64,000 bases of DNA from Thiothrix sp. (GTDB taxonomy: Bacteria; Pseudomonadota; Gammaproteobacteria; Thiotrichales; Thiotrichaceae): positions 113,757 through 177,756 of the forward strand of contig NZ_JAQTLS010000010.1 of NCBI RefSeq assembly GCF_028714775.1, given 5' to 3'. Below, one piece after another: positions 59,513-62,460 of this stretch; positions within the stretch are counted from its first letter, which is position 1, and each line of letters opens with the position of its first letter. The translations under genes were made by a program, and so were the position numbers. The notes beneath the pieces are model-generated. The model saw only the letters and a program-made list of their open reading frames with translations, searched no databases and was not told where the DNA came from.

Positions 59513-60189
59513 TCGGGGCAAACGGCCTTGCCGCTTCATGGCTGGGGGCGATTGGCGCTGAGTTCGGGCAGGCTTACATGCAGGAGTTGGAGGCTTTCCT
59601 TGCGCGGGAACAAGCGCTGGGCAAATCCATCCTCCCGCCTGCTGAGATGCGTTTCAATGCCTTGCGGGCGACGGCGTTGGAAGCTGTGAACGTGGTGATC
59701 TTGGGGCAAGACCCTTACCCCACGCTGGGGCACGCACACGGCCTGTCATTTTCGGTATTGCCGGGCGTCAAACCGCTGCCGCGTTCGCTGCAAAACATCT
59801 ACAAGGAACTGCTCGCCGATGTCGGGGTTGATAACCACCACACGGGTTGCCTGCAAACGTGGGCGCAACAGGGCGTGTTACTGCTGAACACGGTATTGTC
59901 GGTCGAGGAGGGCTGCGCCGCTAGCCACCAGAAAAAAGGTTGGGAACGTTTCACCGATGCGGTGATTCAGGCGGTTAACCAACAAGCAAATCCGGTGGTG
60001 TTCGTGTTGTGGGGCGGTCATGCACAGAAAAAAACGGGGCTGATTGATGAATCTCGCCATTTGGTGATTAAAAGTGCGCACCCTTCGCCGCTGTCAGCGC
60101 GGCACGGTTTCTTTGGTAGCAAGCCGTTTTCCACCATCAATACTTTCTTGCACGAACACGGGCGGGCGAAGATTAACTGGCAGTTGTGA
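59509..60189 (+). CDS. ung: Uracil-DNA glycosylase
   Basis: 226 residues from the ATG at 59509, in a ATGA overlap with the upstream gene; the frame is open 117 codons earlier only by chance. Catalytic GQDPYP loop, LLLNTVLSVE, WGGHAQ and the HPSPLSA leucine-loop are complete. Removes uracil from DNA. Confidence 0.95.
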   Translation: MIGANGLAASWLGAIGAEFGQAYMQELEAFLAREQALGKSILPPAEMRFNALRATALEAVNVVILGQDPYPTLGHAHGLSFSVLPGVKPLPRSLQNIYKELLADVGVDNHHTGCLQTWAQQGVLLLNTVLSVEEGCAASHQKKGWERFTDAVIQAVNQQANPVVFVLWGGHAQKKTGLIDESRHLVIKSAHPSPLSARHGFFGSKPFSTINTFLHEHGRAKINWQL

Positions 60190-60736
60190 GCGGAGCTTGT
60201 AGGTAAAGGGTTGGCACATGATCCGTCAGCCACACGCCATTGTCTGAGCGATAGAAGTTGAAACCATCGCGCTGCATTTGCCCTGCGGCTACTTTCAGGA
60301 TAATCGGTTTGCCGTGCCGGATTCCGACTTTATAGGCGGTTTCTTCATCGGCGGAGAGGTGTACGTGTTGGCGGGAACGCTTTTCCAGACCTGTTTGCAA
60401 AATCGAGTCCAGAAAACGTTCGGCAGTGCCGTGATACAAGATTTCGGGCGGTTCAATGGGCTGCAAACCTAAATCCAGTGTTTTCAGTGAGTGCCCCTGA
60501 TTGGCACGGATGCGGATTTTATCCTCATTGAAGCTGAAACGCTGTTTGTCGTTGGTGGTAACGACGTGTTCCAGTTCTTCCATGCTCATGCCGCGCCCGT
60601 GCGCAGCCAGTTGCGCCAGTAATTCGGGAACAGATGCCCAGCCCGCCTCGTCGAGTGTTAGGCCGATTTTATCCGGCTCATGTCGCAGGATGAGGCTGAG
60701 GAATTTGCTTTGTTTGGTGGTGCTTATTTGCTTCAT
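60173..60736 (-). CDS. kptA: RNA 2'-phosphotransferase KptA
   Basis: 187 residues from the ATG at 60736. KQSKFLSLILRHEPDKIGLTLDEAGWASVPELL, NDKQRFSFNEDKIRIRANQGHS, LYHGTAERFLDSILQTGL and VHLSADEETAYKVG match KptA/Tpt1. These enzymes use NAD+ to remove a 2'-phosphate left by an RNA ligase, giving ADP-ribose 1''-2'' cyclic phosphate. It lies 51 bp behind the slipin gene in the sigma-54 unit and overlaps ung convergently by 17 bp at its end. In this context I infer a role in RNA repair. Confidence 0.93.
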   Translation of the reverse strand: MKQISTTKQSKFLSLILRHEPDKIGLTLDEAGWASVPELLAQLAAHGRGMSMEELEHVVTTNDKQRFSFNEDKIRIRANQGHSLKTLDLGLQPIEPPEILYHGTAERFLDSILQTGLEKRSRQHVHLSADEETAYKVGIRHGKPIILKVAAGQMQRDGFNFYRSDNGVWLTDHVPTLYLQAPLTTAS

Positions 60737-60757
60737 TGTCTGTGTTCTTGAATTAAA

Positions 60758-60783
60758 GGGCGGAGCCAATTTTGACCCCGCCC
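60758..60783 (-). terminator. GC-rich hairpin between slipin and kptA
   Basis: GGGCGGGGTC / GGCTCCGCCC pairs over 10 bp (two G-T pairs) with a 6-nt AAAATT loop and a following TTTAATT. It could act as a partial terminator or mRNA-processing site that lowers kptA relative to slipin. Confidence 0.5.
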
Positions 60784-60786
60784 ATA

Positions 60787-61950
60787 TTACGCTGCCTTGC
60801 CCTTGTCCGTCAGCTTGACCAGATCGTTCATCACGCCATCCAGCCCGCCGTAGACGTTCAAGGTGCTGATGCGCCCGGTGATCTTTTCCAAGATTTCCAG
60901 CTCTTTCAAGCGCAGCAACACAGGGTTGCCTTCCATGACTTTGGCGGTGTTGTGCATGGAGCGCGTTTCCTGCGTTTCTTCGCGGCGGCGGATTTGGTTG
61001 GCTTCGGCCTTTTTCTCGGCTTCAACGACTTGCGCCAGAATCGCCTTCATATCACCGGGCAACACGATGTCACGCGCTCCGACAGTTTTCAGGTCAATGC
61101 CGTAAGCCGCTGCTTTTTCCGCCACGCTGTTCTGGATGGTTTGGTTCAGCAAGTTTTTGTCTGCCAGCAATTCATCCAGCGTTTGCGTGGAAACCACCGC
61201 CCGTAAGGCCAATTGCAGTTCACGGTACAAGTAGTCCTTGTGGTCTGCCAGTGTCGTTTTGACTTGCTGCGGATCAACAATCTGCCACATGGCGGACAAG
61301 TTGACGCGCAAGCCTACGCGGTCTTTGGTGAGGATTTCCTGACCGTTGACTTCCATGTTTTGCAAACGGCAATCCAACTGGGTTGCTTCGATGGTGTGGT
61401 TGAACTTCCACCAAACGTGCGTGCCCGCTGTCAGGATGGCGTGCTGTTCGCCGTCAACCTCCAGAAAACCGCTGTGGCCTTCGGGGATGATGGCGATAGC
61501 CATTGCATTTAATGCCGCCGCTCGCAAGATCGCGTCTTTGGCAGCCAGCAATTGGCTTGCCAAGGCTTTGGGCAGCTTGAAATCGGTGCTGATGTCGATT
61601 TTACGCACCTCAATGCTGCGCTGACCTTGCCAGCACGCGCCACGTTGCGCAGGTGGCTTGATGTCTTTCAGCACGTTGTCTTGGTACAGCAAACCGACTT
61701 CCTGTTCGCCGGTTTCCCAGCGATGGATGTGCGCGGCGAATTTGTCGGCGTGCAAATCGGCAAGGCTGACGACATCATCCGGCACAAAGGTTTGCGCACT
61801 GCCGGTGACGGCGAATTGCTGCACGCGGTATTGGTTTTTCCAGCCGTAAAAGGTGTGGACACCCGCAGGCAGGACTTGCGCGAACTGTTCGTCTTTGAAC
61901 AACAGCCCGCGATGTGTTTCTGGAACAATAACTTTGGTTTTGAATAACAT
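60787..61950 (-). CDS. Slipin / SPFH (band 7) protein
   Basis: 387 residues from the ATG at 61950; the longer frame upstream is non-coding leader. Little N-terminal hydrophobicity; begins MLFKTKVIVPETHRGLLFKDEQFAQVL, SPFH/band-7 region at about 130-300 (IPEGHSGFLEVDGEQHAILTAGTHVWWK, ITKD-like LTKDRVGLRVNLSAMWQIVDPQQVKTTLADHKDYLYRELQLALRAVV) and a coiled-coil tail rich in KAEANQIRRREETQETRSM. Slipins form membrane-linked oligomers. Slipin genes are repeatedly found in RtcR/sigma-54 RNA-repair operons, and this one lies between tRNA-like RNAs and kptA. Confidence 0.88.
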   Translation of the reverse strand: MLFKTKVIVPETHRGLLFKDEQFAQVLPAGVHTFYGWKNQYRVQQFAVTGSAQTFVPDDVVSLADLHADKFAAHIHRWETGEQEVGLLYQDNVLKDIKPPAQRGACWQGQRSIEVRKIDISTDFKLPKALASQLLAAKDAILRAAALNAMAIAIIPEGHSGFLEVDGEQHAILTAGTHVWWKFNHTIEATQLDCRLQNMEVNGQEILTKDRVGLRVNLSAMWQIVDPQQVKTTLADHKDYLYRELQLALRAVVSTQTLDELLADKNLLNQTIQNSVAEKAAAYGIDLKTVGARDIVLPGDMKAILAQVVEAEKKAEANQIRRREETQETRSMHNTAKVMEGNPVLLRLKELEILEKITGRISTLNVYGGLDGVMNDLVKLTDKGKAA

Positions 61951-62202
61951 GGCGTTGTCCTTGTAAAAATAAGGTGGCATTCCCCCACACCCTTGCAGGC
62001 TTGACGGTTTGTGCCGGATGGGAACGCCGCGCGAGCCGAGGCCGTTGCGGTTTCGCATCCACCAAACCCACCGTCAAGGCTGCGCGGGTGCTGGTCGTTG
62101 CCGTCAGGTAATCCGTGCCGAAACACGTACAGCCGTCGGGCATTGACCGTGGTGGTTTGCCGTTGTTTGCCCTTGCGGGCTAATCTACCGTAAAAGGGTA
62201 GG
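61951..62202 (-). other. Leader between tRNA-like RNA B and the slipin ATG
   Basis: No credible ORF. On the minus strand it carries small hairpins: CTACC/GGTAG right after tRNA-like B, and GCCC-GCAA-GGGC with a GNRA loop near 62171-62182. There is an ACAAGGAC ribosome site before the slipin ATG. It may contain further RNA structure linked to processing of the tRNA-like units. Confidence 0.5.
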
Positions 62203-62271
62203 TTTACCAGTGGGAGTCGAACCCACTACAGCTTGATCAACTCAAGTGCTCTACCAATGAGCTATGGTAAG
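62203..62271 (-). ncRNA. tRNA-like RNA B
   Basis: 69 nt. Acceptor CTTACCA/TGGTAAA (6 of 7 pairs), D arm GCTC/GAGC with ATTGGTA loop, T arm GTGGG/CCCAC with TTCGACT loop are all tRNA-like. The anticodon arm is wrong: CTTGA/TCAAG closes a 5-nt loop GTTGA; read as a 4-bp stem with 7-nt loop, position 33 is G, not U. No CCA encoded. A working tRNA is unlikely; it follows tRNA-like A with a 1-nt gap. Function inferred from context as an RNA-repair-system RNA. Confidence 0.75.
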
Positions 62272-62272
62272 G

Positions 62273-62344
62273 AGCAGCTAATGGGAGTCGAACCCATGAC
62301 CGACCGAATCTCTCGGTTGCTCTACCAGACTGAGCTATGGCTGT
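62273..62344 (-). ncRNA. tRNA-like RNA A
   Basis: 72 nt, the first transcribed element after the sigma-54 promoter (about 90 nt downstream). D arm GCTC/GAGC with AGTCTGGTA loop and T arm ATGGG/CCCAT with TTCGACT are regular. Acceptor ACAGCCA/TAGCTGC has only 5 of 7 pairs. The anticodon arm ACCGA/TCGGT has a 5-nt loop GAGAT (or a 4-bp stem with G33). Same defect as RNA B, which argues against random decay. Confidence 0.75.
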
Positions 62345-62444
62345 GTTTGTGACTTTGGAAACAGATACGCGGATACACCAGCGGTGGTCGCGTCAGGCAG
62401 GCTGTTGAACCTGCTCCACGAGTAACGAAAGTCGTAGGTATCTT

Positions 62445-62460
62445 TGCAAGGGGTGTGCCA
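62445..62460 (-). promoter_or_regulatory. Sigma-54 promoter
   Basis: The minus strand reads TGGCAC-ACCCC-TTGCA, an exact match to the -24/-12 consensus (TGGCAC N5 TTGCW). Transcription would start near 62433 and run into tRNA-like A, tRNA-like B, slipin and kptA. A bacterial enhancer-binding protein must act from upstream; none is encoded in the window. The AT-rich region 62470-62560 may hold its sites. Confidence 0.85.

What the first reader, a model, noticed from the sequence alone, without database searches (positions are those of the whole stretch)
60173..62460. Sigma-54-driven RNA operon: two tRNA-like RNAs, slipin and KptA without RtcBA
A consensus -24/-12 promoter (TGGCAC-N5-TTGCA at 62445-62460, minus strand) precedes two tandem tRNA-like RNAs, a slipin gene and kptA. 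Sigma-54 control plus structured RNAs plus slipin is the known architecture of RtcR-regulated RNA-repair operons (for example rsr-yrlBA-rtcBA in Salmonella, where YrlA has a tRNA-like module). Here the ligase/cyclase pair is absent and the 2'-phosphate eraser KptA takes the effector position. KptA acting with a stress-induced RNA module would suggest a repair chemistry in which an (unlinked) ligase leaves a 2'-phosphate junction.
Basis: partly seen in the sequence, partly recalled or inferred. Interest (0 to 1): 0.93.

Follow-up and report, generated by a model that had tools for sequence, protein, structure and literature searches.

The report
RtcR-controlled tRNA-mimic, slipin and KptA operon
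In this Thiothrix-like bacterium a long structured leader with two tRNA look-alikes lies in front of genes for a slipin and the RNA 2'-phosphate remover KptA, and its promoter carries the same operator-like motif as the distant RNA-ligase gene rtcB, so all are predicted to be switched on together when tRNAs are broken, which would point to a job for bacterial KptA, whose role has been unclear.

Summary
In detail: a consensus sigma-54 site (62445-62460, minus) precedes two tandem tRNA-like units, a slipin gene and kptA. The strongest evidence was not in the finding: the palindrome CTATC-N6-GATAG occurs at exactly two places in the 4.3 Mb genome, 87 nt upstream of this promoter and 88 nt upstream of the sigma-54 promoter of rtcB, which lies near rtcR on another contig. 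So RtcB is present and predicted to be co-induced in trans by RtcR; RtcA was not found. The ~480-nt leader is a structured RNA with strong covariation. Slipin, tRNA-like RNA and RNA-repair genes recur in relatives (rtcB, RlaP, or Hen1-Pnkp-KptA in a sister species). KptA in the slipin operon was seen only within one genus (5 of 21 family loci; 0 of 18 outside). SPFH/Band-7 with a tRNA-like RNA in RNA repair is, as I recall, published; RtcR control in trans, KptA membership and the full RNA appear to be the new parts. KptA's substrate is unproven, and a hairpin between slipin and kptA leaves co-transcription open.

The parts
62548..62563 (-). operator-like palindrome CTATC-N6-GATAG, predicted RtcR upstream activating site
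   Evidence: one of exactly two exact occurrences in the 4.3 Mb genome; the other is 88 nt upstream of the rtcB sigma-54 site; core kept (7 or 8 of 8 letters) at 68-122 nt in 14 of 17 family loci with RtcR, this one included
62445..62460 (-). sigma-54 (-24/-12) promoter TGGCACACCCCTTGCA; predicted transcription start about 62434
   Evidence: sequence; genome-wide enrichment 32 against 3; conserved in relatives
62342..62437 (-). 5' structured domain of the leader RNA (hairpins with conserved junction letters GGAG / CUGAC / GUAUC)
   Evidence: alignment A1, 8 of 18 pairs with changes on both sides, CM R1 hit 92 bits (the window's sequence is in the model)
62271..62344 (-). tRNA-like module 1 (called Ser, AGA; 5-nt anticodon loop, no encoded CCA)
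62201..62271 (-). tRNA-like module 2 (called Gln, UUG; 5-nt anticodon loop, no encoded CCA)
61972..62200 (-). 3' structured domain of the leader RNA, two small hairpins and a long branched helix, ending about 21 nt before the slipin start
   Evidence: alignment A2 and fold; 95.8% of cells paired, 47 of 80 pairs with compensatory change (these counts include the tRNA-like modules)
60787..61950 (-). slipin (SPFH/Band-7) gene, 387 aa, no predicted transmembrane helix
   Evidence: PF01145; maximum 19-residue hydropathy 1.40; predicted structure
60758..60783 (-). strong hairpin between slipin and kptA (possible weak terminator or processing hairpin)
   Evidence: 11 pairs, 8 of them G-C; -21.5 kcal/mol for the 65-nt stretch
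60173..60736 (-). kptA, RNA 2'-phosphotransferase, 187 aa from ATG at 60736; Arg-His-Arg-Arg tetrad kept
   Evidence: PF01885, NF002014; alignments

Best explanation
The locus is a gene pair for a slipin and the RNA 2'-phosphate eraser KptA behind a conserved, structured ~480-nt leader with two tRNA-like modules, and it is predicted to be switched on by the tRNA-damage sensor RtcR together with the unlinked RNA-ligase gene rtcB. Shown by sequence: the sigma-54 site, the palindrome shared in this genome only with rtcB at nearly the same distance, the covarying RNA structure, the layout in relatives, and rtcR and rtcB elsewhere in the genome. Inferred: broken tRNA ends (5' halves with 2',3'-cyclic phosphate, the RtcR ligand in Salmonella) activate RtcR; RtcR drives both promoters; RtcB reseals tRNAs. 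The leader RNA likely works as a tRNA mimic bound through its D/T elbow, as a decoy or docking RNA, on a soluble slipin assembly. KptA likely removes 2'-phosphates that block repair, either at RNA ends opened by a 2H phosphoesterase or at junctions made by a ligase not yet identified. Untested: any expression, binding or enzyme activity in this organism.
For: CTATCN6GATAG at exactly 2 places in the genome, 87 and 88 nt upstream of sigma-54 sites (rough chance about 6e-8 for both to fall so if placed at random). Among 30 of the 32 exact sigma-54 sites, only these 2 have the exact TATCN6GATA core upstream (one more has 7 of 8). Of 21 family slipin loci, the promoter pair is found in 14 of 17 in genomes with RtcR and 0 of 4 without (Fisher p 0.006); control opposite-strand 3-kb windows 3 of 205. 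In 5 relatives rtcR stands in one array with slipin (with rtcB between in G005, G008, G028, G058; without rtcB in G029). E. coli slipin and K-12 rtcB carry the core (8/8 and 7/8) at the same 107-nt distance (shuffles reach this in 19 and 307 of 5000, so the K-12 match alone is weak). Slipin and RtcR co-occur (17 of 21 against 14 of 42, p 0.0005), as do kptA and RtcR (12 of 15 against 19 of 48, p 0.008; genomes are related, so p is optimistic). RNA covariation. The operon kptA genes form one clade (94/94, 92% of bootstrap trees). Sister species G057 has slipin-Hen1-Pnkp-kptA behind the same promoter type. RtcR ligand: PMC7790460 (abstract and passages).
Against: A strong hairpin separates slipin from kptA here, and a hairpin precedes kptA in each of the other four operon loci, so co-transcription of kptA is not certain. 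kptA follows slipin (directly or after Hen1-Pnkp) in only 5 of 21 family loci and 0 of 18 outside. In Salmonella RtcA is required for operon expression (PMC7790460), yet RtcA is not found here, so signal generation would have to differ. 3 of 17 RtcR-bearing slipin loci lack a detected promoter pair within 3 kb (G009 contig cut; G058 has one further up, before rtcB; G008 has the sigma-54 site without the core). Nine of 15 full-length family kptA genes have no RtcR-type promoter in the DNA fetched. The operator core in relatives is often imperfect and its distance varies (68-122 nt). RtcA and KptA do not exclude each other (3 of 5 RtcA genomes also have kptA).
Confidence: 0.72

Rival explanations
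1. kptA is a passenger: the RtcR-controlled unit is leader RNA plus slipin only, and kptA has its own expression or is mostly cut off by the hairpin at 60758-60783.
For: 11-pair hairpin followed by at least 5 T in 8 bases at the boundary; kptA directly adjacent in only 4 of 21 family loci; the 10 other full-length family kptA genes are not near slipin.
Against: The linkage is kept in 5 species whose slipins are 77-95% identical to the window's (the G051 slipin is broken), and the operon kptA genes are one clade; two of the boundary hairpins (L111, L116) are followed by no real T run (by eye); no sigma-70-like promoter hit in 60100-62600 (a weak consensus test); an unlinked kptA (G034) also stands behind an RtcR-type promoter, after a PcfJ-like gene.
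Confidence: 0.2
2. KptA acts at RNA ends rather than at ligated junctions: a 2H phosphoesterase opens 2',3'-cyclic phosphate to 2'-phosphate and KptA removes it, clearing ends for another ligase or ending the RtcR signal.
For: Proposed for KptA in phage and cellular RNA repair (PMC7824862, PMC9503650, passages read); Pnkp ligase not found in this genome; RtcA, which could recyclise such ends (recalled from Das and Shuman 2013), not found.
Against: The solved Tpt1 structure shows recognition of a junction 3'-PO4 and 2'-PO4 (PMC6333775, passages); a fully dephosphorylated end is not an RtcB substrate (established knowledge); 2H genes were not searched here.
Confidence: 0.35
3. The tRNA-like units are ordinary tRNA genes or decaying pseudogenes that happen to lie in the leader.
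For: ARAGORN and Rfam call both as tRNA; some modules elsewhere end in CCA (17 of 51 by a loose count); the genome's full tRNA set was not examined.
Against: Both window units have 5-nt anticodon loops and no CCA, and the serine unit has no long variable arm; called anticodons differ between related species while D-stem and T-loop letters of module 2 hardly vary and stems covary; they are embedded in a longer covarying RNA.
Confidence: 0.05
4. Another sigma-54 activator, not RtcR, controls the promoter and the palindrome belongs to it.
For: The palindrome is inferred; the passages I read mention the E. coli rtcBA UAS without its letters, so no published RtcR site was compared.
Against: The palindrome core marks rtcB promoters, rtcR-adjacent promoters in Citrobacter and, at 7 of 8 letters, Burkholderia, and lies upstream of the Photobacterium leader, and the pair is missing in the four slipin loci of genomes without RtcR.
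Confidence: 0.08

Closest known systems
SPFH/Band-7 plus tRNA-like RNA modules in RNA-repair systems (Burroughs and Aravind 2016, NAR 44:8525; recalled abstract, paper not held)
   Same: SPFH protein with a cognate tRNA-like non-coding RNA, in the context of RNA-repair genes
   Different: Here no ligase in the operon; KptA as effector; two modules inside a ~480-nt structured leader; predicted RtcR control in trans. How much of this that paper already shows I could not check
rsr-yrlBA-rtcBA of Salmonella (RtcR-controlled)
   Same: Sigma-54/RtcR control, operon RNA with a tRNA-like part
   Different: No Ro60-like domain or YrlA match in the operon; slipin and KptA instead; RtcB unlinked, RtcA not found
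Hen1-Pnkp RNA repair (bacterial)
   Same: In sister species G057 Hen1 and Pnkp lie between slipin and kptA behind the same promoter type
   Different: The window's genome has no Pnkp ligase match
Tpt1/KptA RNA 2'-phosphotransferases
   Same: Family match and Arg-His-Arg-Arg tetrad
   Different: Genomic role: predicted member of an RtcR regulon; PMC6333775 (2019, passages) calls the presence of Tpt1 in bacteria a longstanding conundrum
Anabaena TrcR regulon (PMC10272220, passages read)
   Same: Table 1 lists rtcB and a slipin gene as strongly raised in the trcR deletion, and the text names the 26-gene trn tRNA operon as repressed by TrcR
   Different: Repressor TrcR instead of RtcR; whether that slipin is of the same family was not tested

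Membership tests
RtcR regulon | RtcR encoded in the genome | tested here: met
   one PF06956 match, 240 bits
RtcR regulon | sigma-54 promoter | tested here: met
   exact consensus
RtcR regulon | upstream site shared with the rtcB promoter | tested here: met
   CTATCN6GATAG only at these two places
RtcR regulon | expression depends on RtcR and RpoN | not testable with these tools
   no transcript data
SPFH plus tRNA-like RNA repair systems | SPFH/Band-7 protein with upstream tRNA-like RNA | tested here: met
   ARAGORN calls at least one unit in 19 of 21 family loci
SPFH plus tRNA-like RNA repair systems | ligase (RtcB) or RlaP in the same operon | tested here: not met
   absent in the window operon; RtcB unlinked; met in several relatives
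rsr-yrlBA-rtcBA | Ro60-like (TROVE) protein in the operon | tested here: not met
   only Band_7 and PTS_2-RNA domains; rest of the genome not searched
rsr-yrlBA-rtcBA | YrlA RNA | tested here: not met
   23.3 bits against gathering 69
Tpt1/KptA | family match and catalytic tetrad | tested here: met
   PF01885 184.5 bits; R18, H19, R66, R122 (ATG numbering) align with the CthTpt1 tetrad
Tpt1/KptA | NAD+-dependent removal of RNA 2'-phosphate | not testable with these tools
   needs enzyme assay
Hen1-Pnkp repair | Pnkp ligase in the genome | tested here: not met
   PF16542 not found in own genome, present in 3 of 63
Major vault protein architecture | beta repeats followed by SPFH shoulder and long helix, no transmembrane segment | tested here: inconclusive

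The most novel reading that the evidence does not exclude
The slipin, a soluble vault-like SPFH protein, and the tandem tRNA-mimic RNA form a stress-induced ribonucleoprotein cage that captures broken tRNAs; KptA is its NAD+-dependent enzyme that erases 2'-phosphates, completing RtcB repair in bacteria without RtcA and explaining why some bacteria keep KptA.
Probability: 0.15. Interest if true: 0.93.

Novelty: new variant of a known kind. Interest (0 to 1): 0.75.

Why it matters
Bacterial KptA has been a riddle: widespread, active in vitro, dispensable in E. coli, without a known substrate (PMC6333775, passages). A kptA that sits with tRNA mimics behind an RtcR-type promoter, and in a sister species directly behind Hen1 and Pnkp, gives a specific and testable setting: tRNA damage that activates RtcR. 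The predicted operator would also turn RtcR from a local switch of rtcBA into a regulator in trans, with a motif that can be tested directly, also in E. coli. The ~480-nt RNA with varying tRNA modules is a structured RNA to study as decoy, dock or signal.

Tried and rejected
Searching CTATCN5GATAG was a miscount of mine (6 places, none of them at the two promoters); the right spacing is N6. YrlA as identity of the RNA: rejected, far below its gathering score. KptA as substitute for RtcA across the family: not supported, they overlap in 3 of 5 RtcA genomes. Phage origin: no slipin match in 50,697 phage records at E 1e-10; one IMG/VR contig encodes a relative, not followed. Vault-protein kinship of the N-terminus: weak and inconclusive. 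A terminator at the RNA's 3' end that I suspected by eye was not found by the scan. The slipin search of the class was limited to E 1e-60 and to 369 genomes drawn from a larger group. The paper closest to this finding (Burroughs and Aravind 2016) is not held, so what I say of it is recalled. Literature searches: RtcR with slipin and tRNA gave one paper, on TrcR; slipin with KptA, RtcR with KptA and tRNA, and tRNA-like with band-7 and RNA repair gave none; slipin with RtcB gave two. The library misses most subscription journals, so these are not proof of novelty.
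Full report
Check of the observation. The slipin start conserved in relatives is 61950, so the leader from the predicted start at about 62434 is 484 nt. The exact -24/-12 pattern is enriched in the genome (32 against 3 for the reversed pattern).

Regulation. The genome (4.3 Mb, 70 contigs) has one RtcR match and, 0.9 kb away with one ORF between, an rtcB with its own consensus sigma-54 site; a second rtcB lies elsewhere. Comparing the two upstream regions gave a shared palindrome. 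CTATCN6GATAG occurs at exactly two places in the genome: 88 nt upstream of the rtcB site and 87 nt upstream of the window site; the reversed pattern occurs once. If two such sites fell at random, both landing about that far from one of the 32 sigma-54 sites has a chance of about 6e-8 (rough). Among 30 of the 32 sites examined, these two alone have the exact TATCN6GATA core upstream; one more has 7 of 8 letters.

Relatives. A protein search of the 63 genomes held for the family found 21 slipin orthologues above 400 bits. Of the 17 in genomes with RtcR, 14 have a sigma-54 site (at least 9 of 11 letters) with the operator core (at least 7 of 8) within 3 kb upstream, at 68 to 122 nt; of the 4 in genomes without RtcR, none has (two of these have short upstream sequence); 3 of 205 control windows on the opposite strand do. 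In G005, G008, G028 and G058 rtcR, rtcB and slipin stand in one array, and in G029 rtcR is divergent from slipin without rtcB, so the split arrangement of the window would keep the same control at two places. Fisher tests (promoter pair with RtcR p 0.006, slipin with RtcR p 0.0005, kptA with RtcR p 0.008) ignore kinship and are optimistic. Outside the family, the Citrobacter, Photobacterium and Burkholderia stagnalis loci have RtcR divergent from the slipin locus. Citrobacter has the full core 116 nt upstream of a sigma-54-like site; Burkholderia has 7 of 8 core letters 132 nt upstream of one; Photobacterium has the full core, but its candidate promoter lacks the -12 GC. In E. coli K-12 the rtcB promoter has 7 of 8 core letters at 107 nt, and the E. 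coli slipin gene has 8 of 8 at 107 nt; shuffles of the same stretches reach this in 307 and 19 of 5000. The E. coli query of 2.5 kb with slipin and RlaP is covered at 80% or more in 1617 of 5426 E. coli genomes.

The RNA. The leader has a 5' domain with conserved junction letters, the tRNA-like modules, two small hairpins and a long branched 3' domain. Alignment A1 (16 of 21 family loci, 5' domain): 96.8% of cells paired, 8 of 18 pairs with both-side changes (2 of 500 shuffles as high). Alignment A2 (13 of 21 loci, modules and 3' domain; I left out 8 loci that are more divergent, cut, interrupted or lack a module): 95.8% paired against 81.9% in shuffles and 29-40% when slid, 47 of 80 pairs with both-side changes, 0 of 500 shuffles as high. 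The structures were derived from these alignments, which favours them over slid versions. A covariance model of the 5' domain found it in all 5 family loci left out of A1 (E 5e-28 to 9e-10) and in 2 of 18 loci outside the family at E below 1e-4; it did not find it in Sessilibacter, E. coli, Citrobacter, Burkholderia or Photobacterium, so this domain is shown only for the family and two further loci. The window leader folds better than its shuffles (z -2.5). No Rfam family other than tRNA reaches its gathering score in the window.

The tRNA-like modules. ARAGORN units in 34 of 42 slipin loci examined, in 19 of the 21 family loci; it calls none in the E. coli and Citrobacter loci. Called anticodons vary between related species (Ser, Gln, Pro, Leu, Ile, Asn, Met, Phe, Val, Arg or none), while in module 2 the D stem and T-loop letters hardly vary. 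Both window units have 5-nt anticodon loops and no CCA. So they are unlikely to decode; an elbow-binding mimic fits, as decoy for anticodon nucleases, dock for repair proteins or source of RtcR signal. Choice among these is inference. Hughes et al. 2020 (PMC7790460, abstract and passages) raise the decoy idea for YrlA and show that RtcR binds 5' tRNA halves with cyclic phosphate.

The slipin. The model (pLDDT 82.5) has N-terminal beta units, an SPFH domain and a long helix; no 19-residue stretch averages above 1.40 in hydropathy. Sequence and fold matches are to stomatin and other SPFH proteins. Alignment over the whole model with major vault protein is significant by E-value but of low TM-score and mostly through the SPFH part; the N-terminal part alone matches SPFH1 units weakly. 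A cage or scaffold is a likely but unshown role.

KptA. It keeps the Arg-His-Arg-Arg tetrad. Next to slipin it occurs in G000, G062, G051 and G052, and in G057 as slipin-Hen1-Pnkp-kptA; these five form one clade of the 15 full-length family kptA genes (94/94). The other 10 are not near slipin; one of them (G034, with its near-identical relative in G033, where the kptA match is partial) follows a PcfJ-like gene behind a sigma-54 site, with an operator core in G034. So 6 of 15 stand behind an RtcR-type promoter. None of 18 slipin loci outside the family has kptA in the stretch fetched; 11 have rtcB, 4 rtcR, 2 rtcA, 1 RlaP (several contigs are cut). RtcA is not found in any of the 16 genus genomes (5 of 63 in the family have it). 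Pnkp ligase is not found in the window's genome (3 of 63).

Reading. The best account is an RtcR-controlled RNA-repair unit in trans: rtcB at one place, tRNA-mimic RNA plus slipin plus KptA at another. What KptA does to which RNA is open: end cleaning (rival 2) and junction cleaning are both compatible. The strong hairpin between slipin and kptA keeps passenger status of kptA possible. My memory of Burroughs and Aravind 2016 is that Band-7 proteins with a tRNA-like RNA in RNA repair are known; hence 'new variant of a known kind'.

Noticed in passing
L155:7055-8979, L161:2556-4480: E. coli has a slipin-RlaP gene pair near lysC with a sigma-54-like site, operator core and a leader that by eye keeps only a T-arm-like hairpin; a 2.5-kb query over it is covered at 80% or more in 1617 of 5426 E. 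coli genomes.
   Followed up: partly
L167:331-2492, L219:3931-5827: A second kptA setting: sigma-54 site and (in L167) operator core, then a PcfJ-like gene and kptA; the PcfJ-like proteins of the two genomes are 98% identical.
   Followed up: partly
L121:2360-4873: In G051 an IS605-type OrfB gene stands where the tRNA-like modules and the start of slipin are expected, while promoter, 5' RNA domain and kptA remain.
   Followed up: partly
window 60758-60783; L111, L116, L121, L115: A strong hairpin precedes kptA in all five operon loci, of different sequence in each.
   Followed up: partly
L006:1300-1400: The second rtcB has a GC-rich leader containing GGTGGAGGAATGC, which by eye resembles the 3' end of the slipin leader RNA; no Rfam match there.
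   Followed up: partly
L211, within 1200 nt upstream of slipin: One slipin locus outside the family has four tRNA calls in a row (Lys, Gly, Val, Met) between rtcB and slipin.
   Followed up: no
PMC10272220: In Anabaena a different regulator, TrcR, keeps rtcB, a slipin gene and a 26-gene tRNA operon down: an independent hint that the three belong together (passages).
   Followed up: no
window 63528-63788 +: UPF0175 family gene on the other strand beyond the promoter; this family is often antitoxin-like (recalled).
   Followed up: no
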